A stretch of 64,000 nucleotides of DNA, taken from contig OX419343.1 in the NCBI GenBank assembly GCA_948470475.1, forward strand, positions 3,347,333-3,411,332, written 5' to 3'. The notes beneath the pieces were generated by a model that searched no databases, was not told where the DNA came from, and saw nothing but the letters and a program-made list of their open reading frames with translations. The translations under genes and the position numbers were made by a program. The number at the start of each line of letters is the position of its first letter. The stretch's first letter is position 1. Below, in pieces: positions 6,797 to 35,446 of the stretch. The DNA comes from Galaxea fascicularis. Lineage: Eukaryota; Cnidaria; Anthozoa; Scleractinia; Euphylliidae.

Positions 6797-9700
6797 GCAA
6801 CCACTCCCTCACACTTGCAACCACTCCCTCACACTTGCAACCACTCCCTCACACTTGCAACCACTCCCTCACACTTGCAACCACTCCCTCACACTTGCAA
6901 CCACTCCCTCACACTTGCAACCACTCCCTCACACTTGCAACCACTCCCTCACACTTGCAACCACTCCCTCACACTTGCAACCACTCCCTCACACTTGCAA
7001 CCACTCCCTCACACTTGCAACCACTCCCTCACACTTGCAACCACTCCCTCACACTTGCAACCACTCCCTCACACTTGCAACCACTCCCTCACACTTGCAA
7101 CCACTCCCTCACACTTGCAACCACTCCCTCACACTTGCAACCACTCCCTCACACTTGCAACCACTCCCTCACACTTGCAACCACTCCCTCACACTTGCAA
7201 CCACTCCCTCACACTTGCAACCACTCCCTCACACTTGCAACCACTCCCTCACACTTGCAACCACTCCCTCACACTTGCAACCACTCCCTCACACTTGCAA
7301 CCACTCCCTCACACTTGCAACCACTCCCTCACACTTGCAACCACTCCCTCACACTTGCAACCACTCCCTCACACTTGCAACCACTCCCTCACACTTGCAA
7401 CCACTCCCTCACACTTGCAACCACTCCCTCACACTTGCAACCACTCCCTCACACTTGCAACCACTCCCTCACACTTGCAACCACTCCCTCACACTTGCAA
7501 CCACTCCCTCACACTTGCAACCACTCCCTCACACTTGCAACCACTCCCTCACACTTGCAACCACTCCCTCACACTTGCAACCACTCCCTCACACTTGCAA
7601 CCACTCCCTCACACTTGCAACCACTCCCTCACACTTGCAACCACTCCCTCACACTTGCAACCACTCCCTCACACTTGCAACCACTCCCTCACACTTGCAA
7701 CCACTCCCTCACACTTGCAACCACTCCCTCACACTTGCAACCACTCCCTCACACTTGCAACCACTCCCTCACACTTGCAACCACTCCCTCACACTTGCAA
7801 CCACTCCCTCACACTTGCAACCACTCCCTCACACTTGCAACCACTCCCTCACACTTGCAACCACTCCCTCACACTTGCAACCACTCCCTCACACTTGCAA
7901 CCACTCCCTCACACTTGCAACCACTCCCTCACACTTGCAACCACTCCCTCACACTTGCAACCACTCCCTCACACTTGCAACCACTCCCTCACACTTGCAA
8001 CCACTCCCTCACACTTGCAACCACTCCCTCACACTTGCAACCACTCCCTCACACTTGCAACCACTCCCTCACACTTGCAACCACTCCCTCACACTTGCAA
8101 CCACTCCCTCACACTTGCAACCACTCCCTCACACTTGCAACCACTCCCTCACACTTGCAACCACTCCCTCACACTTGCAACCACTCCCTCACACTTGCAA
8201 CCACTCCCTCACACTTGCAACCACTCCCTCACACTTGCAACCACTCCCTCACACTTGCAACCACTCCCTCACACTTGCAACCACTCCCTCACACTTGCAA
8301 CCACTCCCTCACACTTGCAACCACTCCCTCACACTTGCAACCACTCCCTCACACTTGCAACCACTCCCTCACACTTGCAACCACTCCCTCACACTTGCAA
8401 CCACTCCCTCACACTTGCAACCACTCCCTCACACTTGCAACCACTCCCTCACACTTGCAACCACTCCCTCACACTTGCAACCACTCCCTCACACTTGCAA
8501 CCACTCCCTCACACTTGCAACCACTCCCTCACACTTGCAACCACTCCCTCACACTTGCAACCACTCCCTCACACTTGCAACCACTCCCTCACACTTGCAA
8601 CCACTCCCTCACACTTGCAACCACTCCCTCACACTTGCAACCACTCCCTCACACTTGCAACCACTCCCTCACACTTGCAACCACTCCCTCACACTTGCAA
8701 CCACTCCCTCACACTTGCAACCACTCCCTCACACTTGCAACCACTCCCTCACACTTGCAACCACTCCCTCACACTTGCAACCACTCCCTCACACTTGCAA
8801 CCACTCCCTCACACTTGCAACCACTCCCTCACACTTGCAACCACTCCCTCACACTTGCAACCACTCCCTCACACTTGCAACCACTCCCTCACACTTGCAA
8901 CCACTCCCTCACACTTGCAACCACTCCCTCACACTTGCAACCACTCCCTCACACTTGCAACCACTCCCTCACACTTGCAACCACTCCCTCACACTTGCAA
9001 CCACTCCCTCACACTTGCAACCACTCCCTCACACTTGCAACCACTCCCTCACACTTGCAACCACTCCCTCACACTTGCAACCACTCCCTCACACTTGCAA
9101 CCACTCCCTCACACTTGCAACCACTCCCTCACACTTGCAACCACTCCCTCACACTTGCAACCACTCCCTCACACTTGCAACCACTCCCTCACACTTGCAA
9201 CCACTCCCTCACACTTGCAACCACTCCCTCACACTTGCAACCACTCCCTCACACTTGCAACCACTCCCTCACACTTGCAACCACTCCCTCACACTTGCAA
9301 CCACTCCCTCACACTTGCAACCACTCCCTCACACTTGCAACCACTCCCTCACACTTGCAACCACTCCCTCACACTTGCAACCACTCCCTCACACTTGCAA
9401 CCACTCCCTCACACTTGCAACCACTCCCTCACACTTGCAACCACTCCCTCACACTTGCAACCACTCCCTCACACTTGCAACCACTCCCTCACACTTGCAA
9501 CCACTCCCTCACACTTGCAACCACTCCCTCACACTTGCAACCACTCCCTCACACTTGCAACCACTCCCTCACACTTGCAACCACTCCCTCACACTTGCAA
9601 CCACTCCCTCACACTTGCAACCACTCCCTCACACTTGCAACCACTCCCTCACACTTGCAACCACTCCCTCACACTTGCAACCACTCCCTCACACTTGCAA

Positions 9701-9798
9701 CCACTCCCTCACACTTGCAACCACTCCCTCACACTTGCAACCACTCCCTCACACTTGCAACCACTCCCTCACACTTGCAACCACTCCCTCACACTTGC
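6797..9798 (+). repeat. 20-bp minisatellite, ~150 perfect copies
   Basis: The unit CAACCACTCCCTCACACTTG repeats for 3,002 bp with no mismatch that I can see. Both edges are abrupt. Because 20 is not a multiple of 3 and no reading of the plus strand makes a stop, all three plus frames stay open for about 1,000 codons and encode the same 20-residue period. These are artefacts, not genes. The unit is homologous to the 24-bp unit at 25,899-35,446 in inverted orientation: CACTTGCA, ACCA, C and CCCTCA match in order, with 4 extra bases in the longer unit. Confidence 0.97.
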
Positions 9799-10232
9799 GT
9801 GTTGTTTGTCTTTAATGGAAGGGGAAGTTATTTAGTTTTTATTTAATAATAGGTATTCGTTTTGTATTGTCGTGGTTATTTTAGCAGGTTTAGTAGTAGT
9901 GAAAACAACGCTTAGTAAAATGTCCTTTTTTAAATAGTGTGTAGTGAATGCTCGTACACTTTGTCATCTTGCACATCTGATGTTTTATACCCTTTAAATA
10001 ATTTGTTTGCATATTGACTGGTAGCTGTTTTTTTTGCCTGAGAAAACGTTTTCTTTACCTGTTATTTGGATGTGATATTTAAATGGTATTGAAAACGAAA
10101 GCAATTTTAGTGCGTTTTCCAGTTTCTTTCTTGAAGTTAATTTTTTTTACTTGTATTTTTTATGAATTTCAGTTAATTTCAGCGGTCTACTGACTTTGTT
10201 AATCAGCGGTTCCTGTAAAGGTTAACAAGTAT

Positions 10233-10530
10233 TTGATCGAAACTGTAACCGGAGCTTACATGCCTGTTAGTTTGCATGCACCAGCCCTAACAGTTTCTTT
10301 ACTTTTCTTGGCGTTGCTTGCGGATGCAACTCAATGTGTTTGTAGGGTGACAAACATGTTTAATACACCATCTCGTTTTTATCTCCATTTGATGGAACAT
10401 TCTTTTGTATTTTTGATTGGTAGGTATCACTGGCGGGGAATTTGACAATTAGCCACCAATTATTCTTTAAAGCACATGGCCGTGACGTGCCTGAGGCTCC
10501 TTTAACTGATTCTTCAACCTGAAATTCGAA
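10233..10530 (+). repeat. Left copy of inverted block flanking the two satellites
   Basis: Anchors such as CCGGAGCTTACATGC, TAGTTTGCATGCA, TGGAACATT, AGCCACCAATTAT, GTGACGTG and GAGGCTCCTTTAAC occur here in order. They recur in the same order on the opposite strand at 25,360-25,665. Similarity is roughly three-quarters by eye and fades at both ends. It shows that the sequences inside the two minisatellites are inverted relatives. Confidence 0.85.
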
Positions 10531-10963
10531 AATAGGCGTTTCAGTGATTAACAGATTAATAACGCAACAACTTGTTACTTTTAAAAATTTGGCATAATAT
10601 TAATCTGAATTAGGATCGTAGGTAATATTTGCCATTAAATCATATTTGAAAACAATCATAAGTATAAAAGATAAGTATAATGATTATGAAACTGAAATTG
10701 CTAGAAATTGATATTGCTATTGCTTATAGCTCCCGAAAAGCTACCTTAATAAACTCCCTGGTTCTGGTGTAGCTAATCTCATGACCATGGAACTTTCTCT
10801 ATTGACCTTGGGTTGGCAAAGGCTCTAAACAAAAGGTAAATGTGAGCAGCTGCGATGTATTGCTTCAAGGCCTTCACAGGAGACGTTGCTTGGTTTGTTC
10901 TTGCAATCGCAATCCATGCCCAGTCATGAAATTGAACAGTCGATTCTTGAAATAAAATTTATG

Positions 10964-11043
10964 GGACATAATTATAAGAGTGGGAAAATTTAACACCAAA
11001 AGCGGACATAATTATAAGAGTGGGAAAATTTAACACCAAAAGC
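10964..11043 (+). repeat. 40-bp tandem duplication
   Basis: Two exact copies of a 40-bp unit starting GGACATAATTATAAGAG lie head to tail. The exactness suggests a recent slippage or repair event. It is followed at once by a small hairpin, CTTCAATGAG-loop-CTCATTGAAG (11,043-11,068). Confidence 0.9.
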
Positions 11044-12827
11044 CTTCAATGAGGCATAACTCATTGAAGTGAGAATAAACTGGCATAACGACTGACATAA
11101 AGCAACTGTCCTCCATCTGACAAGGATTGCACAAAGTACAATGAATTATTTGCGTAGATTTAGATAATCTAAGATCTAGAAGCATCCCCTGATAAATACA
11201 GTCAGTGGTTACTATTCTCAGGACTATTTCTGTTGTTGATGTTGTTACGTTACCGTTTGGACAATTGTTATTGTGTGCCTTCAGTCACTTTGCATTCTTT
11301 ACCATTCCCTACTTTGCCATGCTTGGCGAACATTCAGGAAATTTCCCCAAGTAAACCCTGAGCATGAGGTGTGGCATTGGATGGGGCAAGGAGCATTGTC
11401 AATCAAAGCTTAAGTCAATCAAACGACGTCAGATCAAATAACACTGGGGTTGCTTACTGGACTGCCGCATGTTGATCAGCTTTTGAAATTTGCTCTTTTT
11501 TTGCTGTTTAGTTGTTGTTGTTTGTTTTTACTCAGTACCCAATGTAGTCAGTGTTATGTAGTCTTTGCAACCTCACCATCATTGTGAATTGATGCGTTGG
11601 AAACATAAGCAACCTTATTACATGATCTGCCATTTATATGATCTAGACAAAATTAATGCCCTTACACATAACGCGGGCATATATTTCAGAGTTATCTTAG
11701 ATTCAAAAAAGGTATTTATAAACAGGAAGCAAACAATTTCTCTTGATTAGCACTTGGGCAGTTTAAATATTTTTTGTGTGCCAGTTGATCAAGGTTTTTA
11801 CTAAAATTTCCAAGCTTTTTAGCTCTATCTTAAGTTTTCTGGTGCTTTGAGGTTGATGATGAGGAGGTGTGATCACCTCGCCCATTATCTTTTTAATGGT
11901 TTAAGAACAGCAAGATGTGTTCAAGAACAATAACAAGTTGTGATAAATAATAACAGGAACTTGCGACCAAGAAACAATGAAAGTTAAGTGTCAATGAGTT
12001 ATGAACTATGAGTCAATCAGTTAAACGATAAAATTTGCAATTATTTTTTTGATTGCTGCGCTTATCAATGAAATTAACAAAAGCTAATCACAAGCAAACC
12101 AATGGAACAAAGTGGAAGCCAATCAGAGTAGAATGGCAAGTAAACTGGGGTTCTTGTAAGCTTGGCAATTCGTGGTTCAATATTGATAATAACTTATATT
12201 CTGGAAAAAACACCTTAAGTGATGAGGGTTATTTTACTCATAAAACAGAGTTGAATTTACTTTCTTCAATCCTAATATCGTTTTCCGCTCTAGTCTGTTG
12301 AATAACAGGAGCTATTAGTCTTGATCCAGTTATTGTTTTCGCGTCGAGGTCCAGTTGTCGAGAAAAACAGGTTTATGTTCTGCATTTGTCAACCATTTTA
12401 ACATCTGATATAAATTGGGCATGGACTTCAGTTCTAGAAAAAGTAGTAGTAGTATTCCTGTCGATGCTTTGCCGCATTTCTTCACAATTTCTATTTCATT
12501 TTCATCCAACATCCCTTTTACAGTATATTTCGCTGGCAATTTCTTCTTTTCAGTCCTTTTTTTTTTTAAATTCCCATTTTAATTTTTTTTATTCAGTCAT
12601 TTCTAACATATCTATCTTGATTTCTTTTTATTATTATTATTATTTCTTTAAAAATATTTTTCATAATTTTTTTCTATCCGCATTTTTCCATCCACCATCA
12701 GCAGCTATCCGGTCCTCGTTTTACAGACACCCCGCTGGAAAGCCAGATGCTTTGGTAACGCAAAGGCAGCACGCACGCGCCTCGACCCAAAGGGTGCGGG
12801 TCCAAATCTCGGAACGCGGCAGTTGAA

Positions 12828-13886
12828 AAGGGAGATGTATTTTGGGGTGCCGAACCAGTCAATATTCTATATTAATTTCTACTATGGTCAACTTACTTTT
12901 TATATGGTCAATTGCTACTTTTTATGTGGTCATCGATGTTCAGTGCGTTGTTTTCATTCTGAGAAAATGCAAGGGGCGATAGACCGCGCAAACGGCACTT
13001 GCTATAACTGAGTAATTTTTTTTAGGACTTTGCTTTCTTATAAGTAAGAATTGGTGTCAGATTGTTTAAATATTAGCGCGAAGTAACAGCTGATTTTGCA
13101 GAAGATGCAATTTTTTGCCTGTCAAGTTTTTTTTTTTTAAGTTTGACATTGACGGTTGGTATGGTATTACAAAAGGCAACATTGCTTTGTTGTTTACTTA
13201 ATTTTGTGTAAGCACAGAGATCCTTTCAGTGAATTTTATTCCTGATAGGGCTTTCCCCATTAGATTGCGTCGACGCGGTAGCGTCTGTTTAGCCAAGCTG
13301 CTTGAAAAATTCGCTGTGTTTTCGCGAAAGTAGGTTCCGAGGAATTCGTTCCAAGGATCCTTAGGCTTTGCCTTTCACGAATCGAACTTTAACACTTGGT
13401 GGGTAATCGAGATGAAATTAATGTGTGTCCTAAAAGGTTTCCGTTGGCTTAAAATGTGTATTTACGTGGGCCCTCGAGACCATTTGGAAAGCACTATTAA
13501 ATCCATGGCCGATACCAAGGACACTGGGAATGTGTTTCCAGAAACATGTCATAAACAAAATCATAAGAGGCGTTAGAGCCAAAATATAAATTTTTTCAAA
13601 AGGTTTCCACGGAAGTGAGTGTGCGGAATGAAGAATGAAAACTACCCGTGTTCGTCGGGTTGCTATGCAGAGTTTAACCATAATTCACCCCACTTCTACA
13701 CCCGGCCATCTTTGTTTGAGTTTGGGCGCGATGCATTCTGGACATCGTTGACCGTAGAAAAAGTATCAAGTTGACCATCTATGAAATACTTGACCACAGA
13801 AATAGTAAAGTTGACCATATAAAAAGTAAGTTGACCATAGAAATAAATATAGAATATCGACTGCTTCAACGCCTCATACTTCCCGC
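12828..13886. mobile_element. ~1-kb inverted-repeat element with iterated GGTCAA arms
   Basis: The arms at about 12,840-12,960 and 13,735-13,870 are inverted copies. Each is built from degenerate repeats of about 25 bp around TATGGTCAACTTACTTTTTA or its reverse complement. The spacer between them (12,960-13,735) has no recognisable transposase; the 83-codon minus frame at 13,430-13,681 is not convincing. I read this as a non-autonomous foldback-type element of unknown superfamily. Confidence 0.65.
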
Positions 13887-13912
13887 GGGAAACGGGGTAC
13901 GGAAAACACTGC

Positions 13913-14299
13913 AATAGAGTTCTAAAGTGTGACGTCACAAAAAATTAAATTTGTGAAATTATGGGATTTGGCGCCATTTTCGAATAGAGCATCCTTAAAA
14001 AAGGGGCCTTGCCAAAAATTAGCTCTTAACTGTGATTCCCAGCCGAAATATAAAGGATTAAAATTTGATACTGCCCCACACAAATCTCTTAATTTGAGTC
14101 AGTTCTAAACTGACGGAACTGAAACAAATTTGTATGGGATGCCATCAAACTTTGTTCCCTTATATCTCTACCGGCAATTGCAATTCAGAGCTAATTTTTG
14201 GGATGAGGGCGTCTTTTAGGATGCTCTATACGAATATGGCATCATATCCCATAATTTCAAGAAATACTTTTGTGACGTCATCACTTTAGAATTCTATTT
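13913..14299. mobile_element. Palindromic MITE, ~387 bp
   Basis: The ends AATAGAGTTCTAAAGTG and CACTTTAGAATTCTATT are inverted. They are followed inward by TGACGTCAC, ATTATGGGAT and GAGCATCCT, which are mirrored on the other side. The arms almost meet in the middle near 14,110. It has no coding capacity. Confidence 0.8.
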
Positions 14300-14914
14300 G
14301 GGACTACGATGAAGTAAAAAAAGAAACCCGATCGAATTTTCACCGTGGTTGCCACAGGCATCTCACGGAATAAAAACGAACTGAGTTTTCGTCGACTTCA
14401 TACACTAACCACGTTGTTGTCTGCCATATTGGATAACAAGCTGTCCGAGAGGAGACTAGGTATATTGGCGGGGGACGGAGTTAAATTCGACGTCTGAATC
14501 AAACGCCGTATTTAATTATTTCAGTGGACTAAAATAGGAATTTAAAAATTCGGCACATGTGAAGTGCGACGTTTGAACCGGGCCTCAATACTGCTTGCTA
14601 TGTAAAGACTACACAAGTGTTGGGTGTTTATCAGTCAAAACAAATATGGTATTGACATATTGGGGCGTAGTGCCAAAATTTTCTAGGCGGCCTGTACCTC
14701 TTATTTCACTGGCAAATGCCGTTGCCAAAAATGTACTGAAGAAAGATTGGCTATCGCTAATTAAATTAAGACTGTAAATAAAATCAATATTTGAGGCTGT
14801 GCCGCGTAAAATAATTTTGCTAATGGAATGAATAATAAACATACGGACAAATGCAAAAAGTGAATGGGTGGACAGAGAGGCACCCACAGAAAAAGGAAGC
14901 GTTAATAACAGTTC
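14300..14914. other. Spacer with a partial MITE end
   Basis: No gene. The stretch ending GTGCGACGTTTGAACCGGGCC near 14,583 is the same terminal sequence family as the MITE at 5,736-6,086, so a diverged member probably ends here. Its other end was not found with confidence. Confidence 0.4.
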
Positions 14915-17900
14915 AAAATTTGGCAATGGCAATTGTTCTGAAACAAATCTAAACTTTTGGTACTAACTTGAAATTTGTTTTGCGCGATTTTGAATCAAAA
15001 GGAAAACCCCGAAAGCTGTTCTGTTTAGCGATTCCTGTCAGCTGGAATATACTTGTTTCCACCTCCATTTCAATGTTATAGTTTTCTACAAAAATTCCCG
15101 AAGTAGACAAAGTTGGTTTCCTAGCCGAACCTGCAAAAAACGCGCACCCTTAATATTTCACTTGAATTTGAAACAATCTGTGGGCTTGTCATCACAAAAT
15201 ATTCATGGATCAGTTGCCTTGTCCTATTAAATACATCACTCAATGTTAGAATTCGTGTATTAAGACTTATCTGAATCAGCTGGGGCTGGAGACGCAGAGT
15301 GGAAAATTCTTGTGCTTCGCGTTCCTCAGTCGCACACCCTAAAAAGATAGAAAAGCAATTTGTCAGGCAAGCACAATAAAAATCATATGTAGCAGGGTCA
15401 CTTCACCACTTATTGAACTGCATTTTGAGTGATATAAATAAATTTGACGCCATATGCGTGAGGTCACTATAACAACATTAATAATCAGTTTCGGGCCGGG
15501 GTTACCGTTCGTGTATCGTTCAAAGAAACACATGAAGACAAACCCAGCCAGGCCGTACCTTTTAAAACCAGTGATGTTTACCGAACGCCTTTGGAGGCGC
15601 CAGTCATCGTGTAACTTTCATCCATCCTTGACAACATTCAACGGGAAATACAGAAATAAACCAATTACTTGTATATGTACACTCTAGTCTCGATAAGAAA
15701 TGTTGCTTAATTTTGGTCAAACAAAATCGTGCGAAGTACACGTCATGTTCACATGTCTCGAAACAATAATTGAAGCTGCCGAAATCGTCTGCTAACGAGA
15801 TTCAAGGTCAATGATCAATTGCAAATTATGAAGAAAACTTTAAGCGCTAGCGTTCATTTTATGTTGCAGCCAATAACTCGGAAACACAAACTCGTATTTA
15901 ATTAAAATAATAACTGAGCGAGAACTAACCTGCTGACTCTTCTGATCTTTGTTGTTCAACAAGAAGACACCACGCCAAGGATTTCAAAATGAGCTTTCAC
16001 AGTATGTGGCAAACACCACAAGAACTTTGGGCTCTGCCGTAGGTATCACCACTTTTTATACTGTATTAAAAAATTCGCGACGTACTGTACGATGAAAAAA
16101 TATTTGATTTGCTAGTGAACTTTACGCAATCAACACCTTAACGCAGCTCTCTTGTCAGAATCGTTCATGTTGCTTTCGGAATTTTTTGGCAGTTGAGTGT
16201 TATTTATTTCACAGTGCAATGAGAAGACTAAGGCGGCATTTTTTCAGTGGGCGTAATTAGTATCGCATTTAACGAATTGTTCTTAGTTTTCTCAGCGAAA
16301 CGACAGTAAGCATGCAATTAACACGATAACGTGGCTCTCTTGTCAGAATCGTCCCATGTGCATTCTGATTTGTATTTATGTTTCATGAGGCAGTGTGGAG
16401 ACCAACGGGGATCTTGATCTCGATTTATACTAATCACATCTTATCAGTAAGTGCGATCGATCGTTTTAACCGAATGCTGCGTGCACCCTCTTTTGAGCAT
16501 GAAAATGTCGACTTCTTAATAATTTTCATAATTTCTAGGAAAAAAGGAATACTTTTCGGTTGTTGCCTTAAAAAAATTAGATGAAATTGTTTTGCAAATT
16601 AACTGAATATTTCAAGCAATTGATTATAAATACAATTACAGATCAACATGTACACTCAACTCTGAAGCAGGGTCGCCTCGGCATAACATATGTCACTCCA
16701 TGATAATAAAAGAAGGCTGAGGCATGGTGCCTGGAAAAGAGCTTCTCTATGATAGGAAATTTTCTTTTTATGTCTGCAGAAAAACGAATTTTGAGTACCA
16801 AGCCGGGGAAAGGGGAAAATAAAACAGTTGACCTTTGATTTTTCTCAACAAGGAAGTAACGTTATTGTTATTAACAGGAGCCCATTATTTATGGGCTCCT
16901 GTTATTAAGAATTATTATGTAGTTGCATTTTATATTGTAATCACCTGATGAATTTGATTGATTAACTTCGCTCTTGAAAACAGAGTTATCAGTTTTTGTT
17001 TGTTGAAAACGAGAAATTTATGTTTCTAGCTGGAGGAAGTAAGACTGGGGTTTCGCAAAAGGAGAACATTTTTGCCCTCAAATAATTATAAGTGAACAAG
17101 GAAATTTGAATTTTAGAGATATGAGGAAGTCGGCATTTTCATGATCAAAAGAGGATGCATGCACAAGATGAAATTAGTATAAATCGAGATCAAGGTACCC
17201 GTTGGTCTCCACACCGCCTCATGGAACATAAATACAAATCCGAATGCACATGGGACGATTCTGACAAAAGAGCCGCGTTAACGTGTTAATTGCATACTTT
17301 TTTTTGTGTGTTGTTTCGCTGAGAAAACTAAGAACAATTCGTTAAATGCGATACTAATTGCACCCACTGAAAACATGGCGCCTTAGTCTTCTCACCGCCC
17401 TGTGAAATATATAACACTCAACTGCCATAAAATTCCGAAAGCAATATGGATGATGAGAGCTGTATTAAGGTGTTAATTGCATGAAGTTCCCAGGCTAATC
17501 CAAACATTTTTTCATCGTAGATTCCGTTGTGAATTTTTGGTACAGTATAAAAAGAGGTGATACATATACGTACGGCAGAGCCCAAAGTTCTTGTGGTGTT
17601 TGCCACATACTGTGAAAGCTCATTTTGAAGCCCTTGGCGTGGTCTCTTCTTGTTGAACAACAAAGATCAGACTGAGACTCTGCAGGTTAGTTCTCACTCA
17701 GTTATTTGGATTAAGTATGAGTTTGTGTTTCCGAGTTATTGGTTGCAACATCAAATGAACGCTAGCGCTTAATATTCAACATTCCGCTCTGCGACTGCAG
17801 TTCCAGCTAGTTCAGATAAGTCTTATACGAGTTCTTACATCGAGTGATGTATTTTAATTAATAGGACAAGGGAATTAAATGCAAATGATACAGTCGCACA

Positions 17901-24302: not shown

Positions 24303-25898
24303 GTCTTAAAAGTTACTCGCATTAAAGTTACTCAAGAATTGAATAAGTCAGAGTTAAATCAATTTAATTAGTACTCGTTGTCTCAGGCCATAATTTGTGA
24401 ACATAAGTTTAATATTTAGTATTAGTGTTACTTAATACTTTCCCATTTAATAAACATTAGTTATTTTAATTCGATTCATGTTGTGTTAGGAGATTGTGGG
24501 AAGGTGTTTGTTTCGCTTTGTTTCTACCTCCTTTCGTTGTGTGTACCGGGGAAAATCGCCGGACTCACGTCACACGGTTGTCGTTACTTTTCGGACACTC
24601 TGCGTCTCCCATTTTTCGGTTATTTTTTAGAATATACAAATAAAATCCCCATATTTTATTTCGAGAAATTGAATAGTCTACCGTGACTAGCCGGTTTTAC
24701 TTTAGACAAGGATTTTCGTCTCCTATAAGAGCGGCAAAACTAAATTCTTGCGACTGAACCAAGTCCACTTTTCGACTCTTAGTATTACTAATTTTAAATG
24801 TTAGAGGGTAAGAAATATTAAATGTTCTAAATGTTACACCTTGGTTGCATTTGGGGCAATTCCTCTCGAAATAACCAACGTACAGAAAAAGCTAGTTTTG
24901 CGAAATGTTACCGGAAAACAACTTCCTCATTGCGTCAGAATCATTCCTGAAAAGGCGAAAATTTATTTTTTTATAAAGAGAGTTTGAGGTTTCAGTCTCC
25001 ACGTCAAAGAGTACAATGTATGTAGCACATTTGCCACTGGAGTGAATTTACACGTATTTTAAAACTACTTGAGAATTAGAGGTGATTGCATAAAAATAAT
25101 ACTAGTTCATGTGTATCCTGAATATACACGTGATACCACTAAATCTTTCTAACATTAGAACATTTCCATAATGGCGTGAAAAGTTCACTTTACCTCACCA
25201 AAAACTACAACATTTTTGAAAATGTCACGAAATTCGTGGCATTCTTAAACACAAGTTCACTCAAGATATTAAAGCGTATAATTTTTCCCTTTGTTATTCA
25301 ATTGTCCCGCGTTAACGTAGATATAAGTCATCACCTGAAATTAAAACGACTATTTTCGCTTTTCAGGTTGAACAATCAGTGTTAAAGGAGCCTCGGCCAC
25401 GTCACTGACATATACATTAAAGAATTATAATTGGTGGCTGATTTTCAAATTCCCGGCCATTGGTACTTATCGATCAAGAAAAGCAAAATAATGTTCCACC
25501 TGATAGAGATACGAATGAGTTGTTCTATTCACTGCAAAACGTTTGTCAGGCTGCAAAAACCCACTGAGTTTCCTTAGCAAGCCATACAGAGCGAATTAAA
25601 AAAACTGTCAGGGCAGATGCATGCAAACTATACAAGCATGTAAGCTCCGGTTCCAGTTTCCATCAAATGTGCCTTCCCGATTAAAAAAAATCCGTTACTG
25701 GACAAAGCCTACCAAGCATCAAAAAACAAAACTAGAAAATAAACTCTCCACCATCAGTACCTGCCTCCAAATTTTTTTTCTTTTTAATAAGGTCTGACCG
25801 TCTCCTAAACACTCAGTTCTCCGATTCTCATAACTCAAACACGAAAAAAATATTCTCAGCCAGCAACAAACAAAACTACTAACCAAAAACCACTCAAC
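24303..25898. other. Inner flank of the right satellite, no gene
   Basis: AT-rich DNA without a credible gene. It contains the inverted homologue (25,360-25,665) of the block beside the left satellite. The last ~230 bp before the array have no clear counterpart on the left. Confidence 0.5.
25360..25665 (-). repeat. Right copy of inverted block flanking the two satellites
   Basis: On the minus strand this matches 10,233-10,530 anchor by anchor. It sits about 235 bp inside the 24-bp array, while the left copy sits about 435 bp inside the 20-bp array. The flanks have therefore changed in length since the copies diverged. Confidence 0.85.
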
Positions 25899-28800
25899 GT
25901 CTGGTGTGCAAGTGTTGAGGGGGTCTGGTGTGCAAGTGTTGAGGGGGTCTGGTGTGCAAGTGTTGAGGGGGTCTGGTGTGCAAGTGTTGAGGGGGTCTGG
26001 TGTGCAAGTGTTGAGGGGGTCTGGTGTGCAAGTGTTGAGGGGGTCTGGTGTGCAAGTGTTGAGGGGGTCTGGTGTGCAAGTGTTGAGGGGGTCTGGTGTG
26101 CAAGTGTTGAGGGGGTCTGGTGTGCAAGTGTTGAGGGGGTCTGGTGTGCAAGTGTTGAGGGGGTCTGGTGTGCAAGTGTTGAGGGGGTCTGGTGTGCAAG
26201 TGTTGAGGGGGTCTGGTGTGCAAGTGTTGAGGGGGTCTGGTGTGCAAGTGTTGAGGGGGTCTGGTGTGCAAGTGTTGAGGGGGTCTGGTGTGCAAGTGTT
26301 GAGGGGGTCTGGTGTGCAAGTGTTGAGGGGGTCTGGTGTGCAAGTGTTGAGGGGGTCTGGTGTGCAAGTGTTGAGGGGGTCTGGTGTGCAAGTGTTGAGG
26401 GGGTCTGGTGTGCAAGTGTTGAGGGGGTCTGGTGTGCAAGTGTTGAGGGGGTCTGGTGTGCAAGTGTTGAGGGGGTCTGGTGTGCAAGTGTTGAGGGGGT
26501 CTGGTGTGCAAGTGTTGAGGGGGTCTGGTGTGCAAGTGTTGAGGGGGTCTGGTGTGCAAGTGTTGAGGGGGTCTGGTGTGCAAGTGTTGAGGGGGTCTGG
26601 TGTGCAAGTGTTGAGGGGGTCTGGTGTGCAAGTGTTGAGGGGGTCTGGTGTGCAAGTGTTGAGGGGGTCTGGTGTGCAAGTGTTGAGGGGGTCTGGTGTG
26701 CAAGTGTTGAGGGGGTCTGGTGTGCAAGTGTTGAGGGGGTCTGGTGTGCAAGTGTTGAGGGGGTCTGGTGTGCAAGTGTTGAGGGGGTCTGGTGTGCAAG
26801 TGTTGAGGGGGTCTGGTGTGCAAGTGTTGAGGGGGTCTGGTGTGCAAGTGTTGAGGGGGTCTGGTGTGCAAGTGTTGAGGGGGTCTGGTGTGCAAGTGTT
26901 GAGGGGGTCTGGTGTGCAAGTGTTGAGGGGGTCTGGTGTGCAAGTGTTGAGGGGGTCTGGTGTGCAAGTGTTGAGGGGGTCTGGTGTGCAAGTGTTGAGG
27001 GGGTCTGGTGTGCAAGTGTTGAGGGGGTCTGGTGTGCAAGTGTTGAGGGGGTCTGGTGTGCAAGTGTTGAGGGGGTCTGGTGTGCAAGTGTTGAGGGGGT
27101 CTGGTGTGCAAGTGTTGAGGGGGTCTGGTGTGCAAGTGTTGAGGGGGTCTGGTGTGCAAGTGTTGAGGGGGTCTGGTGTGCAAGTGTTGAGGGGGTCTGG
27201 TGTGCAAGTGTTGAGGGGGTCTGGTGTGCAAGTGTTGAGGGGGTCTGGTGTGCAAGTGTTGAGGGGGTCTGGTGTGCAAGTGTTGAGGGGGTCTGGTGTG
27301 CAAGTGTTGAGGGGGTCTGGTGTGCAAGTGTTGAGGGGGTCTGGTGTGCAAGTGTTGAGGGGGTCTGGTGTGCAAGTGTTGAGGGGGTCTGGTGTGCAAG
27401 TGTTGAGGGGGTCTGGTGTGCAAGTGTTGAGGGGGTCTGGTGTGCAAGTGTTGAGGGGGTCTGGTGTGCAAGTGTTGAGGGGGTCTGGTGTGCAAGTGTT
27501 GAGGGGGTCTGGTGTGCAAGTGTTGAGGGGGTCTGGTGTGCAAGTGTTGAGGGGGTCTGGTGTGCAAGTGTTGAGGGGGTCTGGTGTGCAAGTGTTGAGG
27601 GGGTCTGGTGTGCAAGTGTTGAGGGGGTCTGGTGTGCAAGTGTTGAGGGGGTCTGGTGTGCAAGTGTTGAGGGGGTCTGGTGTGCAAGTGTTGAGGGGGT
27701 CTGGTGTGCAAGTGTTGAGGGGGTCTGGTGTGCAAGTGTTGAGGGGGTCTGGTGTGCAAGTGTTGAGGGGGTCTGGTGTGCAAGTGTTGAGGGGGTCTGG
27801 TGTGCAAGTGTTGAGGGGGTCTGGTGTGCAAGTGTTGAGGGGGTCTGGTGTGCAAGTGTTGAGGGGGTCTGGTGTGCAAGTGTTGAGGGGGTCTGGTGTG
27901 CAAGTGTTGAGGGGGTCTGGTGTGCAAGTGTTGAGGGGGTCTGGTGTGCAAGTGTTGAGGGGGTCTGGTGTGCAAGTGTTGAGGGGGTCTGGTGTGCAAG
28001 TGTTGAGGGGGTCTGGTGTGCAAGTGTTGAGGGGGTCTGGTGTGCAAGTGTTGAGGGGGTCTGGTGTGCAAGTGTTGAGGGGGTCTGGTGTGCAAGTGTT
28101 GAGGGGGTCTGGTGTGCAAGTGTTGAGGGGGTCTGGTGTGCAAGTGTTGAGGGGGTCTGGTGTGCAAGTGTTGAGGGGGTCTGGTGTGCAAGTGTTGAGG
28201 GGGTCTGGTGTGCAAGTGTTGAGGGGGTCTGGTGTGCAAGTGTTGAGGGGGTCTGGTGTGCAAGTGTTGAGGGGGTCTGGTGTGCAAGTGTTGAGGGGGT
28301 CTGGTGTGCAAGTGTTGAGGGGGTCTGGTGTGCAAGTGTTGAGGGGGTCTGGTGTGCAAGTGTTGAGGGGGTCTGGTGTGCAAGTGTTGAGGGGGTCTGG
28401 TGTGCAAGTGTTGAGGGGGTCTGGTGTGCAAGTGTTGAGGGGGTCTGGTGTGCAAGTGTTGAGGGGGTCTGGTGTGCAAGTGTTGAGGGGGTCTGGTGTG
28501 CAAGTGTTGAGGGGGTCTGGTGTGCAAGTGTTGAGGGGGTCTGGTGTGCAAGTGTTGAGGGGGTCTGGTGTGCAAGTGTTGAGGGGGTCTGGTGTGCAAG
28601 TGTTGAGGGGGTCTGGTGTGCAAGTGTTGAGGGGGTCTGGTGTGCAAGTGTTGAGGGGGTCTGGTGTGCAAGTGTTGAGGGGGTCTGGTGTGCAAGTGTT
28701 GAGGGGGTCTGGTGTGCAAGTGTTGAGGGGGTCTGGTGTGCAAGTGTTGAGGGGGTCTGGTGTGCAAGTGTTGAGGGGGTCTGGTGTGCAAGTGTTGAGG

Positions 28801-31800
28801 GGGTCTGGTGTGCAAGTGTTGAGGGGGTCTGGTGTGCAAGTGTTGAGGGGGTCTGGTGTGCAAGTGTTGAGGGGGTCTGGTGTGCAAGTGTTGAGGGGGT
28901 CTGGTGTGCAAGTGTTGAGGGGGTCTGGTGTGCAAGTGTTGAGGGGGTCTGGTGTGCAAGTGTTGAGGGGGTCTGGTGTGCAAGTGTTGAGGGGGTCTGG
29001 TGTGCAAGTGTTGAGGGGGTCTGGTGTGCAAGTGTTGAGGGGGTCTGGTGTGCAAGTGTTGAGGGGGTCTGGTGTGCAAGTGTTGAGGGGGTCTGGTGTG
29101 CAAGTGTTGAGGGGGTCTGGTGTGCAAGTGTTGAGGGGGTCTGGTGTGCAAGTGTTGAGGGGGTCTGGTGTGCAAGTGTTGAGGGGGTCTGGTGTGCAAG
29201 TGTTGAGGGGGTCTGGTGTGCAAGTGTTGAGGGGGTCTGGTGTGCAAGTGTTGAGGGGGTCTGGTGTGCAAGTGTTGAGGGGGTCTGGTGTGCAAGTGTT
29301 GAGGGGGTCTGGTGTGCAAGTGTTGAGGGGGTCTGGTGTGCAAGTGTTGAGGGGGTCTGGTGTGCAAGTGTTGAGGGGGTCTGGTGTGCAAGTGTTGAGG
29401 GGGTCTGGTGTGCAAGTGTTGAGGGGGTCTGGTGTGCAAGTGTTGAGGGGGTCTGGTGTGCAAGTGTTGAGGGGGTCTGGTGTGCAAGTGTTGAGGGGGT
29501 CTGGTGTGCAAGTGTTGAGGGGGTCTGGTGTGCAAGTGTTGAGGGGGTCTGGTGTGCAAGTGTTGAGGGGGTCTGGTGTGCAAGTGTTGAGGGGGTCTGG
29601 TGTGCAAGTGTTGAGGGGGTCTGGTGTGCAAGTGTTGAGGGGGTCTGGTGTGCAAGTGTTGAGGGGGTCTGGTGTGCAAGTGTTGAGGGGGTCTGGTGTG
29701 CAAGTGTTGAGGGGGTCTGGTGTGCAAGTGTTGAGGGGGTCTGGTGTGCAAGTGTTGAGGGGGTCTGGTGTGCAAGTGTTGAGGGGGTCTGGTGTGCAAG
29801 TGTTGAGGGGGTCTGGTGTGCAAGTGTTGAGGGGGTCTGGTGTGCAAGTGTTGAGGGGGTCTGGTGTGCAAGTGTTGAGGGGGTCTGGTGTGCAAGTGTT
29901 GAGGGGGTCTGGTGTGCAAGTGTTGAGGGGGTCTGGTGTGCAAGTGTTGAGGGGGTCTGGTGTGCAAGTGTTGAGGGGGTCTGGTGTGCAAGTGTTGAGG
30001 GGGTCTGGTGTGCAAGTGTTGAGGGGGTCTGGTGTGCAAGTGTTGAGGGGGTCTGGTGTGCAAGTGTTGAGGGGGTCTGGTGTGCAAGTGTTGAGGGGGT
30101 CTGGTGTGCAAGTGTTGAGGGGGTCTGGTGTGCAAGTGTTGAGGGGGTCTGGTGTGCAAGTGTTGAGGGGGTCTGGTGTGCAAGTGTTGAGGGGGTCTGG
30201 TGTGCAAGTGTTGAGGGGGTCTGGTGTGCAAGTGTTGAGGGGGTCTGGTGTGCAAGTGTTGAGGGGGTCTGGTGTGCAAGTGTTGAGGGGGTCTGGTGTG
30301 CAAGTGTTGAGGGGGTCTGGTGTGCAAGTGTTGAGGGGGTCTGGTGTGCAAGTGTTGAGGGGGTCTGGTGTGCAAGTGTTGAGGGGGTCTGGTGTGCAAG
30401 TGTTGAGGGGGTCTGGTGTGCAAGTGTTGAGGGGGTCTGGTGTGCAAGTGTTGAGGGGGTCTGGTGTGCAAGTGTTGAGGGGGTCTGGTGTGCAAGTGTT
30501 GAGGGGGTCTGGTGTGCAAGTGTTGAGGGGGTCTGGTGTGCAAGTGTTGAGGGGGTCTGGTGTGCAAGTGTTGAGGGGGTCTGGTGTGCAAGTGTTGAGG
30601 GGGTCTGGTGTGCAAGTGTTGAGGGGGTCTGGTGTGCAAGTGTTGAGGGGGTCTGGTGTGCAAGTGTTGAGGGGGTCTGGTGTGCAAGTGTTGAGGGGGT
30701 CTGGTGTGCAAGTGTTGAGGGGGTCTGGTGTGCAAGTGTTGAGGGGGTCTGGTGTGCAAGTGTTGAGGGGGTCTGGTGTGCAAGTGTTGAGGGGGTCTGG
30801 TGTGCAAGTGTTGAGGGGGTCTGGTGTGCAAGTGTTGAGGGGGTCTGGTGTGCAAGTGTTGAGGGGGTCTGGTGTGCAAGTGTTGAGGGGGTCTGGTGTG
30901 CAAGTGTTGAGGGGGTCTGGTGTGCAAGTGTTGAGGGGGTCTGGTGTGCAAGTGTTGAGGGGGTCTGGTGTGCAAGTGTTGAGGGGGTCTGGTGTGCAAG
31001 TGTTGAGGGGGTCTGGTGTGCAAGTGTTGAGGGGGTCTGGTGTGCAAGTGTTGAGGGGGTCTGGTGTGCAAGTGTTGAGGGGGTCTGGTGTGCAAGTGTT
31101 GAGGGGGTCTGGTGTGCAAGTGTTGAGGGGGTCTGGTGTGCAAGTGTTGAGGGGGGTCTGGTGTGCAAGTGTTGAGGGGGTCTGGTGTGCAAGTGTTGAG
31201 GGGGACTGGTGTGCAAGTGTTGAGGGGGTCTGGTGTGCAAGTGTTGAGGGGGTCTGGTGTGCAAGTGTTGAGGGGGTCTGGTGTGCAAGTGTTGAGGGGG
31301 TCTGGTGTGCAAGTGTTGAGGGGTCTGGTGTGCAAGTGTTGAGGGGGTCTGGTGTGCAAGTGTTGAGGGGGTCTGGTGTGCAAGTGTTGAGGGGGTCTGG
31401 TGTGCAAGTGTTGAGGGGGTCTGGTGTGCAAGTGTTGAGGGGGTCTGGTGTGCAAGTGTTGAGGGGGTCTGGTGTGCAAGTGTTGAGGGGTCTGGTGTGC
31501 AGTGTTGAGGGGGTCTGGTGTGCAAGTGTTGAGGGGGTCTGGTGTGCAAGTGTTGAGGGGGTCTGGTGTGCAAGTGTTGAGGGGGTCTGGTGTGCAAGTG
31601 TTGAGGGGGTCTGGTGTGCAAGTGTTGAGGGGGTCTGGTGTGCAAGTGTTGAGGGGGTCTGGTGTGCAAGTGTTGAGGGGGTCTGGTGTGCAAGTGTTGA
31701 GGGGGTCCTGGTGTGCAAGTGTTGAGGGGGTCTGGTGTGCAAGTGTTGAGGGGGTCTGGTGTGCAGTGTTGAGGGGGTCTGGTGTGCAAGTGTTGAGGGG

Positions 31801-34800
31801 TCTGGTGTGCAAGTGTTGAGGGGGTCTGGTGTGCAAGTGTTGAGGGGGTCTGGTGTGCAAGTGTTGAGGGGGTCTGGTGTGCAAGTGTGAGGGGGTCTGG
31901 TGTGCAAGTGTTGAGGGGGTCTGGTGTGCAAGTGTGGGGGCTGGAAGGTGAGAGTGTGGGAGGGGGGGGGTCTGGTGTGCAAGTGTTGAGGGGGTCTGGT
32001 GTGCAAGTGTTGAGGGGTCTGGTGTGCAAGTGTTGAGGGGGTCTGGTGTGCAAGTGTTGAGGGGGGTCTGGTGTGTGCAAGTGTTGAGGGGGTCTGGTGT
32101 GCAAGTGTTGAGGGGGTCTGGTGTGCAAGTGTTGAGGGGGTCTGGTGTGCAAGTGTTGAGGGGGTCTGGTGTGCAAGTGTTGAGGGGGTCTGTGTGCAGA
32201 GTGTGTGAGGGGGGGTCTGGTGTGCAGTGTGAGGGGTCAGTGTGAGGTGAGGGGGGGGGCTTGGTGTGCAAGTGGGGGGTCTGTGTGCAGTGTTGAGGGG
32301 GTCTGGTGTGCAAGTGTTGAGGGGGGTCTGGTGTCAAGTGTTGAGGGGGTCTGGTGTGCAAGTGTTGAGTGGGTCTGGTGTGCAAGTGTTGAGGGGGTCT
32401 GGTGTGCAAGTGTTGAGGGGGTCTGGTGTGCAAGTGTTGAGGGGGTCTGGTGTGCAAGTGTTGTAGGGGGTCTGGTGTGCAAGTGTTGAGGGGGTCTGGT
32501 GTGCAAGTGTTGAGTGGGGTCTGGTGTGCAAGTGTTGAGGGGGGTCTGGTGTGCAAGTGTTGAGGGGTCTGGTGTGCAAGTGTTGAGGGGGTCTGGTGTG
32601 CAAGTGTTGAGGGGGTCTGGCTGGTGTGCAAGTGTTGAGGGGGTCTGGTGTGCAAGTGTTGAGGGGGTCTGGTGTGCAAGTGTTGAGGGGGTCTGGTGTG
32701 CAAGTGTTGAGGGGGTCTGGTGTGCAAGTGTTGAGGGGGTCTGGTGTGCAAGTGTTGAGGGGGTCTGGTGTGCAAGTGTTGAGGGGGTCTGGTGTGCAAG
32801 TGTTGAGGGGGTCTGGTGTGCAAGTGTTGAGGGGGTCTGGTGTGCAAGTGTTGAGGGGGTCTGGTGTGCAAGTGTTGAGGGGGTCTGGTGTGCAAGTGTT
32901 GAGGGGGTCTGGTGTGCAAGTGTTGAGGGGGTCTGGTGTGCAAGTGTTGAGGGGGTCTGGTGTGCAAGTGTTGAGGGGGTCTGGTGTGCAAGTGTTGAGG
33001 GGGTCTGGTGTGCAAGTGTTGAGGGGGTCTGGTGTGCAAGTGTTGAGGGGGTCTGGTGTGCAAGTGTTGAGGGGGTCTGGTGTGCAAGTGTTGAGGGGGT
33101 CTGGTGTGCAAGTGTTGAGGGGGTCTGGTGTGCAAGTGTTGAGGGGGTCTGGTGTGCAAGTGTTGAGGGGGTCTGGTGTGCAAGTGTTGAGGGGGTCTGG
33201 TGTGCAAGTGTTGAGGGGGTCTGGTGTGCAAGTGTTGAGGGGGTCTGGTGTGCAAGTGTTGAGGGGGTCTGGTGTGCAAGTGTTGAGGGGGTCTGGTGTG
33301 CAAGTGTTGAGGGGGTCTGGTGTGCAAGTGTTGAGGGGGTCTGGTGTGCAAGTGTTGAGGGGGTCTGGTGTGCAAGTGTTGAGGGGGTCTGGTGTGCAAG
33401 TGTTGAGGGGGTCTGGTGTGCAAGTGTTGAGGGGGTCTGGTGTGCAAGTGTTGAGGGGGTCTGGTGTGCAAGTGTTGAGGGGGTCTGGTGTGCAAGTGTT
33501 GAGGGGGTCTGGTGTGCAAGTGTTGAGGGGGTCTGGTGTGCAAGTGTTGAGGGGGTCTGGTGTGCAAGTGTTGAGGGGGTCTGGTGTGCAAGTGTTGAGG
33601 GGGTCTGGTGTGCAAGTGTTGAGGGGGTCTGGTGTGCAAGTGTTGAGGGGGTCTGGTGTGCAAGTGTTGAGGGGGTCTGGTGTGCAAGTGTTGAGGGGGT
33701 CTGGTGTGCAAGTGTTGAGGGGGTCTGGTGTGCAAGTGTTGAGGGGGTCTGGTGTGCAAGTGTTGAGGGGGTCTGGTGTGCAAGTGTTGAGGGGGTCTGG
33801 TGTGCAAGTGTTGAGGGGGTCTGGTGTGCAAGTGTTGAGGGGGTCTGGTGTGCAAGTGTTGAGGGGGTCTGGTGTGCAAGTGTTGAGGGGGTCTGGTGTG
33901 CAAGTGTTGAGGGGGTCTGGTGTGCAAGTGTTGAGGGGGTCTGGTGTGCAAGTGTTGAGGGGGTCTGGTGTGCAAGTGTTGAGGGGGTCTGGTGTGCAAG
34001 TGTTGAGGGGGTCTGGTGTGCAAGTGTTGAGGGGGTCTGGTGTGCAAGTGTTGAGGGGGTCTGGTGTGCAAGTGTTGAGGGGGTCTGGTGTGCAAGTGTT
34101 GAGGGGGTCTGGTGTGCAAGTGTTGAGGGGGTCTGGTGTGCAAGTGTTGAGGGGGTCTGGTGTGCAAGTGTTGAGGGGGTCTGGTGTGCAAGTGTTGAGG
34201 GGGTCTGGTGTGCAAGTGTTGAGGGGGTCTGGTGTGCAAGTGTTGAGGGGGTCTGGTGTGCAAGTGTTGAGGGGGTCTGGTGTGCAAGTGTTGAGGGGGT
34301 CTGGTGTGCAAGTGTTGAGGGGGTCTGGTGTGCAAGTGTTGAGGGGGTCTGGTGTGCAAGTGTTGAGGGGGTCTGGTGTGCAAGTGTTGAGGGGGTCTGG
34401 TGTGCAAGTGTTGAGGGGGTCTGGTGTGCAAGTGTTGAGGGGGTCTGGTGTGCAAGTGTTGAGGGGGTCTGGTGTGCAAGTGTTGAGGGGGTCTGGTGTG
34501 CAAGTGTTGAGGGGGTCTGGTGTGCAAGTGTTGAGGGGGTCTGGTGTGCAAGTGTTGAGGGGGTCTGGTGTGCAAGTGTTGAGGGGGTCTGGTGTGCAAG
34601 TGTTGAGGGGGTCTGGTGTGCAAGTGTTGAGGGGGTCTGGTGTGCAAGTGTTGAGGGGGTCTGGTGTGCAAGTGTTGAGGGGGTCTGGTGTGCAAGTGTT
34701 GAGGGGGTCTGGTGTGCAAGTGTTGAGGGGGTCTGGTGTGCAAGTGTTGAGGGGGTCTGGTGTGCAAGTGTTGAGGGGGTCTGGTGTGCAAGTGTTGAGG

Positions 34801-35446
34801 GGGTCTGGTGTGCAAGTGTTGAGGGGGTCTGGTGTGCAAGTGTTGAGGGGGTCTGGTGTGCAAGTGTTGAGGGGGTCTGGTGTGCAAGTGTTGAGGGGGT
34901 CTGGTGTGCAAGTGTTGAGGGGGTCTGGTGTGCAAGTGTTGAGGGGGTCTGGTGTGCAAGTGTTGAGGGGGTCTGGTGTGCAAGTGTTGAGGGGGTCTGG
35001 TGTGCAAGTGTTGAGGGGGTCTGGTGTGCAAGTGTTGAGGGGGTCTGGTGTGCAAGTGTTGAGGGGGTCTGGTGTGCAAGTGTTGAGGGGGTCTGGTGTG
35101 CAAGTGTTGAGGGGGTCTGGTGTGCAAGTGTTGAGGGGGTCTGGTGTGCAAGTGTTGAGGGGGTCTGGTGTGCAAGTGTTGAGGGGGTCTGGTGTGCAAG
35201 TGTTGAGGGGGTCTGGTGTGCAAGTGTTGAGGGGGTCTGGTGTGCAAGTGTTGAGGGGGTCTGGTGTGCAAGTGTTGAGGGGGTCTGGTGTGCAAGTGTT
35301 GAGGGGGTCTGGTGTGCAAGTGTTGAGGGGGTCTGGTGTGCAAGTGTTGAGGGGGTCTGGTGTGCAAGTGTTGAGGGGGTCTGGTGTGCAAGTGTTGAGG
35401 GGGTCTGGTGTGCAAGTGTTGAGGGGGTCTGGTGTGCAAGTGTTGA
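25899..35446 (-). repeat. 24-bp minisatellite, ~398 copies, with a degenerate core
   Basis: The unit on the plus strand is GTCTGGTGTGCAAGTG plus TTGAGGGG. Blocks 25,899-31,141 and 32,626-35,446 look uniform. The stretch 31,142-32,625 carries many single-base insertions and deletions in the G run, missing A or G bases, and a few badly garbled units (31,930-31,970 and 32,190-32,290). Because 24 is a multiple of 3, frames on both strands stay open for 945 to 3,181 codons with an 8-residue period. None is a gene. The array ends 231 bp before the SPAG16 start codon. G5 runs every 24 bp lie on the plus strand. Confidence 0.96.
31142..32625 (+). repeat. Degenerate core of the 24-bp array
   Basis: Within this 1.5 kb most unit changes are one-base indels: G4 or G6 to G9 instead of G5, GCAGTG for GCAAGTG, or duplicated TG or CTGG. 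Real divergence would give mostly substitutions. The pattern resembles uncorrected single-molecule reads bridging two assembled blocks, but a genuinely unstable zone is possible. Confidence 0.85.

What the first reader, a model, noticed from the sequence alone, without database searches (positions are those of the whole stretch)
6797..35446. Giant foldback-like locus with minisatellite outer arms
Three independent inverted relationships share one rough axis. First, the outer minisatellites have homologous units in opposite orientation. Second, the blocks at 10,233-10,530 and 25,360-25,665 are inverted homologues. Third, the centre (14,915-18,030) is a long palindrome with a hairpin at 16,872-16,904. 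Foldback elements of Drosophila (FB, Galileo) have long terminal inverted repeats made of tandem repeats, but at a far smaller scale. A ~28.6-kb version with 3.0- and 9.5-kb tandem arms would be a new kind of element, or a chromosomal inverted duplication that trapped a satellite. No transposase is visible.
Basis: partly seen in the sequence, partly recalled or inferred. Interest (0 to 1): 0.8.

Follow-up and report, generated by a model that had tools for sequence, protein, structure and literature searches.

The report
Giant inverted-repeat element growing minisatellites
The locus is one of about twenty copies found of a large non-coding, inverted-repeat, transposon-like element in one animal genome, and in most copies two tiny sequence seeds have grown into long, almost perfect tandem arrays, with nearby mutations suggesting that the DNA there keeps breaking and being repaired.

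Summary
The inverted relationships are real and recur elsewhere. In the same 416-Mb genome, 18 of 21 left-type block copies (window included; lists capped at 40 scored) have the right-type block inverted 4.7-17.6 kb away, none in another arrangement. Of 30 right-block loci examined, 27 have a 20-26-bp array near the block.

The stated limits are wrong: the left array is internal and the element continues out to 4663. Two pieces are later insertions; the 4.4-kb one is absent, with an empty TTAA site, in other copies. No transposase was found. The nearest known thing is Tetris, a Drosophila foldback transposon whose tandem repeats seeded satellites.

Copies carry the same seed as 1-5 units or as 43 to over 300 near-perfect ones. 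The array-edge unit is nearly fixed (4 of 528 differences), though the adjacent spacer differs by 8-10% from consensus. Substitutions rise from ~2% to 5-13% toward arrays on three flanks; the strand pointing at the array gains A and C, and this flips across the left array. I infer recurrent double-strand breaks repaired by array copying. Copies crowd at one contig end.

The parts
4663..6795 (+). Left outer domain of the element, outside the 20-mer array
   Evidence: 4663-6660 recurs at 17 places at 89-100% (window included; partial 86% hit at C4:13.16M and weaker pieces left out), all within ~10 kb of a left-type block (my count). The match starts at 4663 in many copies; at 10 other places another foldback with TGTATGCCC repeats adjoins there, whereas the window flank differs.
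6796..9798 (-). Left array: 150 identical 20-bp units; G-rich strand runs outward (minus strand)
   Evidence: TRF; all 150 units identical; same unit in C1 and C3 copies
9799..10154 (.). Left spacer, fast-evolving zone between array and block
   Evidence: Homologous in C1, C2, C3 copies; 5-8% substitutions within 200 bp of the array
10155..10574 (+). Left inner block
   Evidence: Inverted homologue of 25299-25740; 21 left-type copies at 95-100%, window included, one partial
10575..14910 (.). Non-coding interior, left part; contains a TIR-bearing piece (12852-13867) and a palindromic piece (13913-14298)
   Evidence: Aligned at 90-92.5% in the C2 copy, both pieces included; no Pfam domain
14911..18026 (.). 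Central palindrome, part of the element
   Evidence: Inverted arms 86%; core 16000-17000 gives 103 matches among 40 scored candidates, many at loci that also hold the blocks
18630..19390 (.). E4: later nested insertion with short terminal inverted repeats
   Evidence: 18632-19374 missing in the C2 copy; TIR; 97% copy of part at 56616-56883
19941..24302 (.). E5: later nested insertion, ~950-bp inverted repeats, TTAA at both ends
   Evidence: Inverted pair; absent in six of six other copies compared; of four junctions displayed three carry a single TTAA and one a changed base there
25299..25740 (-). Right inner block
   Evidence: 26 right-type copies at 80-100%, window included
25741..25898 (.). 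Right spacer, fast-evolving
   Evidence: 8-10% from consensus against 3.4-3.5% in the block
25899..35446 (+). Right array: ~398 24-bp units; G-rich strand runs outward
   Evidence: TRF; 219 and 116 consecutive perfect units; 31155-32642 noisy, mostly indels
35468..35571 (+). Possible remnant of a right outer domain (or a common short repeat)
   Evidence: 82% to the region outside the 24-mer in L020, shorter match in L016; genome search for it did not complete

Best explanation
The locus is a copy of a non-coding, foldback-type composite element whose two arms each carry a short G-rich seed (20-bp unit left, 24-bp unit right in this close family). SHOWN: the element recurs in about 20 copies; different copies hold the same seed at 1-5 units or at 43 to over 300 near-perfect units; the array-edge unit is nearly invariant while the sequence beside it is the most diverged measured within the first kilobase; that divergence decays over a few hundred bases on three flanks and has a strand bias that flips across the left array. 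INFERRED: the seeds and arrays are recurrent double-strand-break sites. Broken ends are resected and repaired by copying array units from the same or another copy. This lengthens arrays, resets units to the common sequence and damages the exposed flanks. The element itself was probably spread by a trans-acting transposase, not identified, and by duplication within one end of each contig.
For: Pairing 18 of 21, other arrangements 0. Arrays near 27 of 30 right-block loci. C2 copy aligned over 9799-18631 at 90-92.5% and over 4663-6664 at 89-94%. Left seed series: 1 unit (L062), 1.5 (L058), 1.55 (C2), 2-3 diverged (L061, L051), 57.5 (C3b), 150 (window), >=283 up to an N run (C3a), ~331 (C1). Right: 2 (L020), 3 (L017), 5 (L016), 43 or more in the other 20 of 23. 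First unit located by periodicity alone: 4 of 528 differences over 22 loci, P 6e-5 against the block rate and 6e-14 against the spacer rate. In L010 and L028 the first unit is canonical and nearly all later units share one private variant, so growth was local. Halo: right inner 12.7% to 2.5%, left inner 7.9% to ~2%, left outer 7-10.6% to 2%; with a gap buffer 4.8-6.2% near against 1.4-2.4% far. Asymmetry on the strand pointing at the array, each change counted once per column: C>A 63/147 vs G>T 4/60, p 8e-8; T>A, A>C, G>C and G>A also in excess. Singletons only: C>A 37/140 vs G>T 2/55, p 1e-4; far 23/332 vs 15/307, p 0.3. A+C on that strand is 0.52-0.55 at 651-900 bp and 0.69-0.71 within 60 bp on the three flanks. 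A 27-mer minisatellite elsewhere in the window shows no such rise. Strand-asymmetric mutations either side of breaks are reported for human meiotic breaks (PMC7615360, passages read).
Against: No break, repair or expansion was observed; all is inferred from one assembly. Copies with short seeds also show the halo (L016, L017, L020: 10, 15, 14 changes within 200 bp against 7-35 in the others). Divergence rises again beyond 900-1200 bp (right 5-8%, left inner 12-16%, left outer 6.4%); I ascribe this to copies lacking homologous sequence or misaligned, but did not prove it. G>C and G>A asymmetries also occur far from the arrays, and C>A weakly so (p 0.04); among singletons G>C is not asymmetric near arrays. 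The A+C rise is uneven on the right flank, and the window's right outer flank has none. Interlocus copying is not seen directly, and private variants show that at least some growth is local. No target-site duplication or complete terminal inverted repeat was found, so transposition is inferred from dispersal.
Confidence: 0.55

Rival explanations
1. Segmental duplication among contig (chromosome) ends: a large repeat-rich segment with two minisatellites was spread by ectopic recombination rather than by transposition.
For: 26 right-type blocks all lie on one side of each of nine contigs, mean 0.09 of contig length from the nearest end; 0 of 20,000 random placements as extreme. No target-site duplication was found. 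Ten other copies share further sequence left of 4663, and L016 and L020 share ~500 bp outside the right array at 82%.
Against: The outer right flanks of L010, L017, L034, L036 and L037 differ from one another and from the window by eye. The C6 relative abuts a frame that looks like a LINE reverse transcriptase and is a near-symmetric foldback. Copies reach 14.6 Mb from the contig end.
Confidence: 0.32
2. Neutral in-place minisatellites: seeds expand by slippage or unequal exchange, and the flank gradient merely reflects weaker constraint near the arms.
For: Private variants fixed within single arrays show local growth. Unexpanded left seeds in L051, L061, L062 and C4 are diverged.
Against: Neutral in-array turnover should let each unit drift at the flank rate; 4 of 528 is far below expectation. 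Short seeds in C2, L058 (left) and L016, L017, L020 (right) are canonical. Weaker constraint does not predict an asymmetry that flips across the array, nor an A+C gradient on both sides.
Confidence: 0.25
3. Assembly or polishing artefact: arrays were homogenised, and flanks corrupted, by misplaced reads.
For: Perfect units are suspicious; 31155-32642 is rich in indels; several arrays run into N.
Against: Private variants survive inside arrays. Edge units are anchored in unique sequence. The A+C gradient is in whole flanks of many copies, not in single bases.
Confidence: 0.1
4. Telomere-like ends: arrays added to ends from an outside template (G-rich strand runs outward on both sides).
For: Polarity of both arrays; variable junction positions; near-canonical unit in 22 right arms.
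Against: The left array is internal, with element sequence on both sides. No unit-like 16-mer with 3 or fewer mismatches elsewhere in the window.
Confidence: 0.05

Closest known systems
Tetris of Drosophila virilis (PMC4079207; abstract, part 1 of Results and part 1 of Discussion read)
   Same: Non-coding foldback-type element; tandem repeats inside the inverted arms; the same repeats short in some copies and grown to satellite arrays in others; no transposase found; enrichment in a chromosome region.
   Different: Tetris inverted repeats are up to 1.7 kb, units ~220 bp, arrays of up to 66 copies, one repeat for both arms, target-site duplications of 8-10 bp. Here units are 20 and 24 bp and differ between arms, arrays reach hundreds of near-perfect copies, the window copy is ~31 kb (about 13 kb without arrays and nested insertions, my arithmetic), no target-site duplication was found, and a mutational halo is seen.
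Galileo (P superfamily foldback; PMC3688188, abstract read)
   Same: Long, internally repetitive inverted repeats; the tandem repeats contain transposase binding sites.
   Different: Galileo has an identified transposase; none was found here and no binding was tested.
Drosophila FB elements (recalled, no call)
   Same: Inverted arms built of tandem repeats.
   Different: Much smaller; the TGTATGCCC foldback in L044 resembles FB more than the main element does.
Cg_HINE Helentrons of oyster (PMC7492417, abstract read)
   Same: Non-autonomous mobile elements that carry satellite-like arrays through a genome.
   Different: Central arrays in a Helentron; here there are two arrays in inverted arms.
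Mutation footprints of human meiotic breaks (PMC7615360, passages read)
   Same: Strand-asymmetric substitutions that change to their complement across the break; minisatellite instability mentioned.
   Different: Human flank footprint extends ~2 kb and differs in detail; here ~300-500 bp, C>A strongest, centred on arrays.

Membership tests
Foldback (FB-like) element | Long inverted arms | tested here: met
   Blocks 77.5% inverted; 18 of 21 paired; C6 relative has arms 94-97% identical over 1.6 + 2.05 kb. In the window the rest of the arm has no detectable homology.
Foldback (FB-like) element | Arms contain tandem repeats | tested here: met
Foldback (FB-like) element | Several dispersed copies | tested here: met
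Foldback (FB-like) element | Terminal inverted repeat at the very ends with target-site duplication | tested here: inconclusive
   Left boundary 4663 shared, but a further repeat adjoins it in other copies; right end not reached in most copies; no duplication seen by eye.
Autonomous DNA transposon | Encodes a transposase | tested here: not met
   Six frames of 10500-25475 (window copy): one sub-threshold Imm11 match only; the same method found WD40 exons elsewhere. L043, most of the C2 copy: no open frame over 126 codons. Autonomous copies elsewhere not searched.
Tetris | Sequence relationship to Tetris | not tested
   No Drosophila sequence was compared
Helitron/Helentron carrying satellites | Central array without inverted arms | tested here: not met
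   Two different arrays in inverted arms
Telomere-like terminal arrays | Arrays at the ends of the element | tested here: not met
   Left array has element sequence on both sides

The most novel reading that the evidence does not exclude
The seeds act as self-renewing break sites: breaks recurring in the unit are repaired by copying array sequence between many loci, so that arrays at some 20 separate places stay canonical while their flanks are mutated on a strand-specific pattern. A transposon family would thus carry a dispersed satellite kept young by its own fragility, perhaps programmed (meiotic, or cut by a sequence-specific nuclease).
Probability: 0.3. Interest if true: 0.85.

Novelty: new variant of a known kind. 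Interest (0 to 1): 0.62.

Why it matters
How satellites are born and kept uniform is an old open question. Here one element gives a natural series of the same seed at 1, 1.5, 2, 3, 57, 150 and over 300 copies in the same flanks, and the flanks appear to keep a record of past repair. That makes local growth, interlocus copying and break-induced mutation separately testable in one genome. If the break reading holds, a strand-flipping A/C gradient beside tandem arrays could mark unstable minisatellites in other genomes.

Tried and rejected
First reading, rejected: that the central palindrome (E3) is an unrelated nested transposon on another axis. Searches show that it travels with both blocks.

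Rejected: arrays as termini of the element. One search aligned the sequence outside the left array to another copy and one search found it at 17 places.

Rejected: arrays made from a template inside the element. No unit-like 16-mer with 3 or fewer mismatches lies outside the arrays in the window, and private variants indicate local growth.

Led nowhere: viral-contig scans for both units and for the block (0 hits). Protein search with an array frame (890 candidates, none at E 0.001). Rfam at gathering threshold found only two tRNAs. A protein search with the TGF-beta receptor-like exon gave 15 unnamed relatives. Papers: nine searches (listings, with the papers named under Closest known systems opened) showed no title or abstract start on such an element in a coral or other cnidarian; the held library is open-access only.

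Dropped before counts: right inner flank, the near-identical L027 always, and the window too (21 and otherwise 22 of 23 copies). Left outer flank: 13 of the fetched loci entered, four (L054, L055, L057, L061) lost because an anchor was not found, nine used; L052, L063, L065-L069 not entered. Left inner flank: nine or ten copies with a readable junction. Far bins beyond 900-1200 bp were left out of the near/far tests (values under evidence against). In one search units were located with a motif that fixes part of the unit; one search repeats this by periodicity alone (22 of 23 loci; L020 too short). An earlier count said 26 of 30 array loci; the table gives 27.
Full report
What was checked. The window is G000:C9:3347333-3411332 in a 416,610,142-base genome of 170 contigs, an animal by its gene content: WD40 exons and a TGF-beta type II receptor-like ectodomain, the latter below Pfam's cut-off. 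The left array is 150 identical 20-mers, the right array ~398 24-mers. The units are related in opposite orientation and the two blocks are inverted homologues.

One element, many copies. The right block matches 40 scored places of 131 candidates; 26 are right-type. The left block matches 40 of 126, of which 21 are left-type at 95-100%, the window included. Eighteen of those 21 have a right-type block 4.7-17.6 kb away in the same inverted arrangement, none in another. The core of the central palindrome gives 103 matches among 40 scored of 183 candidates, many in the same loci. The C2 copy aligns to the window over 9799-18631 at 90-92.5%. So blocks and palindrome are parts of one repeated element. 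E4 is absent from the C2 copy. E5 is absent from six of six other copies compared; of four junctions displayed, three carry a single TTAA and one a changed base there, where the window has TTAA at each end.

The arrays are internal and grew from seeds. The sequence outside the left array (4663-6795) belongs to the element: it aligns to the C2 copy at 89-94% and recurs at 17 places, window included, all near a left-type block by my count. The C2 copy has only 1.55 units there, L062 one unit, L058 1.5, L061 and L051 two to three diverged units, the C1 copy ~331 and the C3 copy at least 283 before a run of N. On the right, L020, L017 and L016 have 2, 3 and 5 units and the other 20 of 23 at least 43, most reaching the locus edge. 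Of 30 right-block loci 27 show an array of 20-26-bp units within ~500 bp of the block. Left arm 20-mer and right arm 24-mer holds for the close family; more distant relatives among the right-block hits have their own unit (20, 24, 25 or 26 bp), again near-perfect inside each array. The C6 relative is a ~15.7-kb foldback with arms 94-97% identical that end in 25-mer arrays of 5.5 and 6.1 copies, each array with its own fixed variant.

Arrays are far more uniform than their surroundings. Over 23 right arms the block differs from consensus at 3.5% of sites; over 22 (window left out) the spacer differs at 8.0-8.5% and its last 60 columns at 9.7%. The first array unit, located by periodicity alone in 22 loci, differs from the canonical 24-mer at 4 of 528 sites. 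In L010 and L028 the first unit is canonical and nearly all later units carry one private change: growth started inside the array, yet most arrays are canonical. Neutral turnover within each array does not explain this. Copying between loci, or growth allowed only from the canonical sequence, would.

Mutational halo. Substitutions from consensus fall with distance from the array on three flanks: right inner 12.7, 6.5, 5.9, 3.9, 3.9, 2.7, 2.5%; left inner 7.9, 7.4, 5.3, 2.2, 2.6, 1.8, 2.6%; left outer 7.0, 10.6, 5.7, 6.3, 4.3, 1.9, 2.0%. With changes near gaps left out, near against far is 5.7 vs 2.4%, 6.2 vs 1.4% and 4.8 vs 1.7%. Beyond 900-1200 bp values rise again, which I attribute to misalignment or missing homology without having proved it. 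On the strand pointing at the array, new A and C predominate: C>A 63 of 147 columns against G>T 4 of 60 near, 50 of 440 against 29 of 403 far (p 0.04); among singletons 37 of 140 against 2 of 55 near, 23 of 332 against 15 of 307 far. On the same DNA strand the bias is to A on the inner flank of the left array and to T and G on its outer flank: it flips across the array. A+C on the array-pointing strand goes from 0.52-0.55 at 651-900 bp to 0.69-0.71 within 60 bp on the three flanks, unevenly on the right. In the window alone, 200-bp pieces at three of four flanks lie within the top 0.4% of random pieces; the right outer flank and a control 27-mer minisatellite do not. Human meiotic breaks show flank mutations whose strand bias reverses across the break (PMC7615360). 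I therefore infer recurrent breakage in the arrays with resection and error-prone repair; this was not observed.

Where the copies lie. All 26 right-type blocks sit on one side of each of nine contigs, mean 0.09 of contig length from the nearest end; none of 20,000 random placements did as much, and with clusters counted once 19 of 20,000 were one-sided. Against a strict rule: more distant relatives lie near the other end of C3 (1.02M and 3.31M), and a left-type copy lies on C12, whose length I did not see. Whether that end is centromeric or subtelomeric is unknown. Tetris expansions were placed in beta-heterochromatin by their authors (PMC4079207).

Filing. In structure it is a foldback-type element close in kind to Tetris. 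I call it a new variant of a known kind. The unusual parts are two different seeds per element, near-perfect arrays of hundreds of units, the frozen unit beside fast-changing flanks, and the strand-flipping halo. On recheck I lowered the best explanation slightly (0.58 to 0.55) and raised segmental duplication (0.30 to 0.32), because L016 and L020 share sequence outside the right array.

Noticed in passing
41992-42471: A ~480-bp palindrome (93%) holding two inverted copies of a tRNA gene (42066-42138 minus, 42325-42397 plus), equal score.
   Followed up: no
31155-32642: Indel-rich stretch inside an otherwise perfect array (50 indel bases against 12 substitutions); looks like poorly read sequence, but a real old core is possible.
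   Followed up: partly
L044:1017-4062: A second foldback beside the element in other copies: inverted arms of 10/20/40-bp TGTATGCCC-type repeats, FB-like in build.
   Followed up: partly
L041+L042 (G000:C6:4433000-4451999): A ~15.7-kb foldback relative with 25-mer ends, a gypsy gag/protease-like piece (names from recall) in one arm, abutting a LINE reverse-transcriptase-like frame.
   Followed up: partly
19941-24302: E5, a 4.4-kb insertion with ~950-bp inverted repeats at TTAA, absent in six other copies compared; no coding domain above cut-off.
   Followed up: partly
48533-48677 and 51821-51965: Two palindromic 145-bp repeats, 96.6% identical, in or near the WD40 gene region.
   Followed up: no
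L039:4100-5480: Another degenerate ~40-bp tandem repeat (GGGGTATATGAACCCAAATGAACG type) outside the right end of the C3 copy.
   Followed up: no
19121-19386 and 56616-56883: Part of E4 has a 97% identical copy elsewhere in the window.
   Followed up: no
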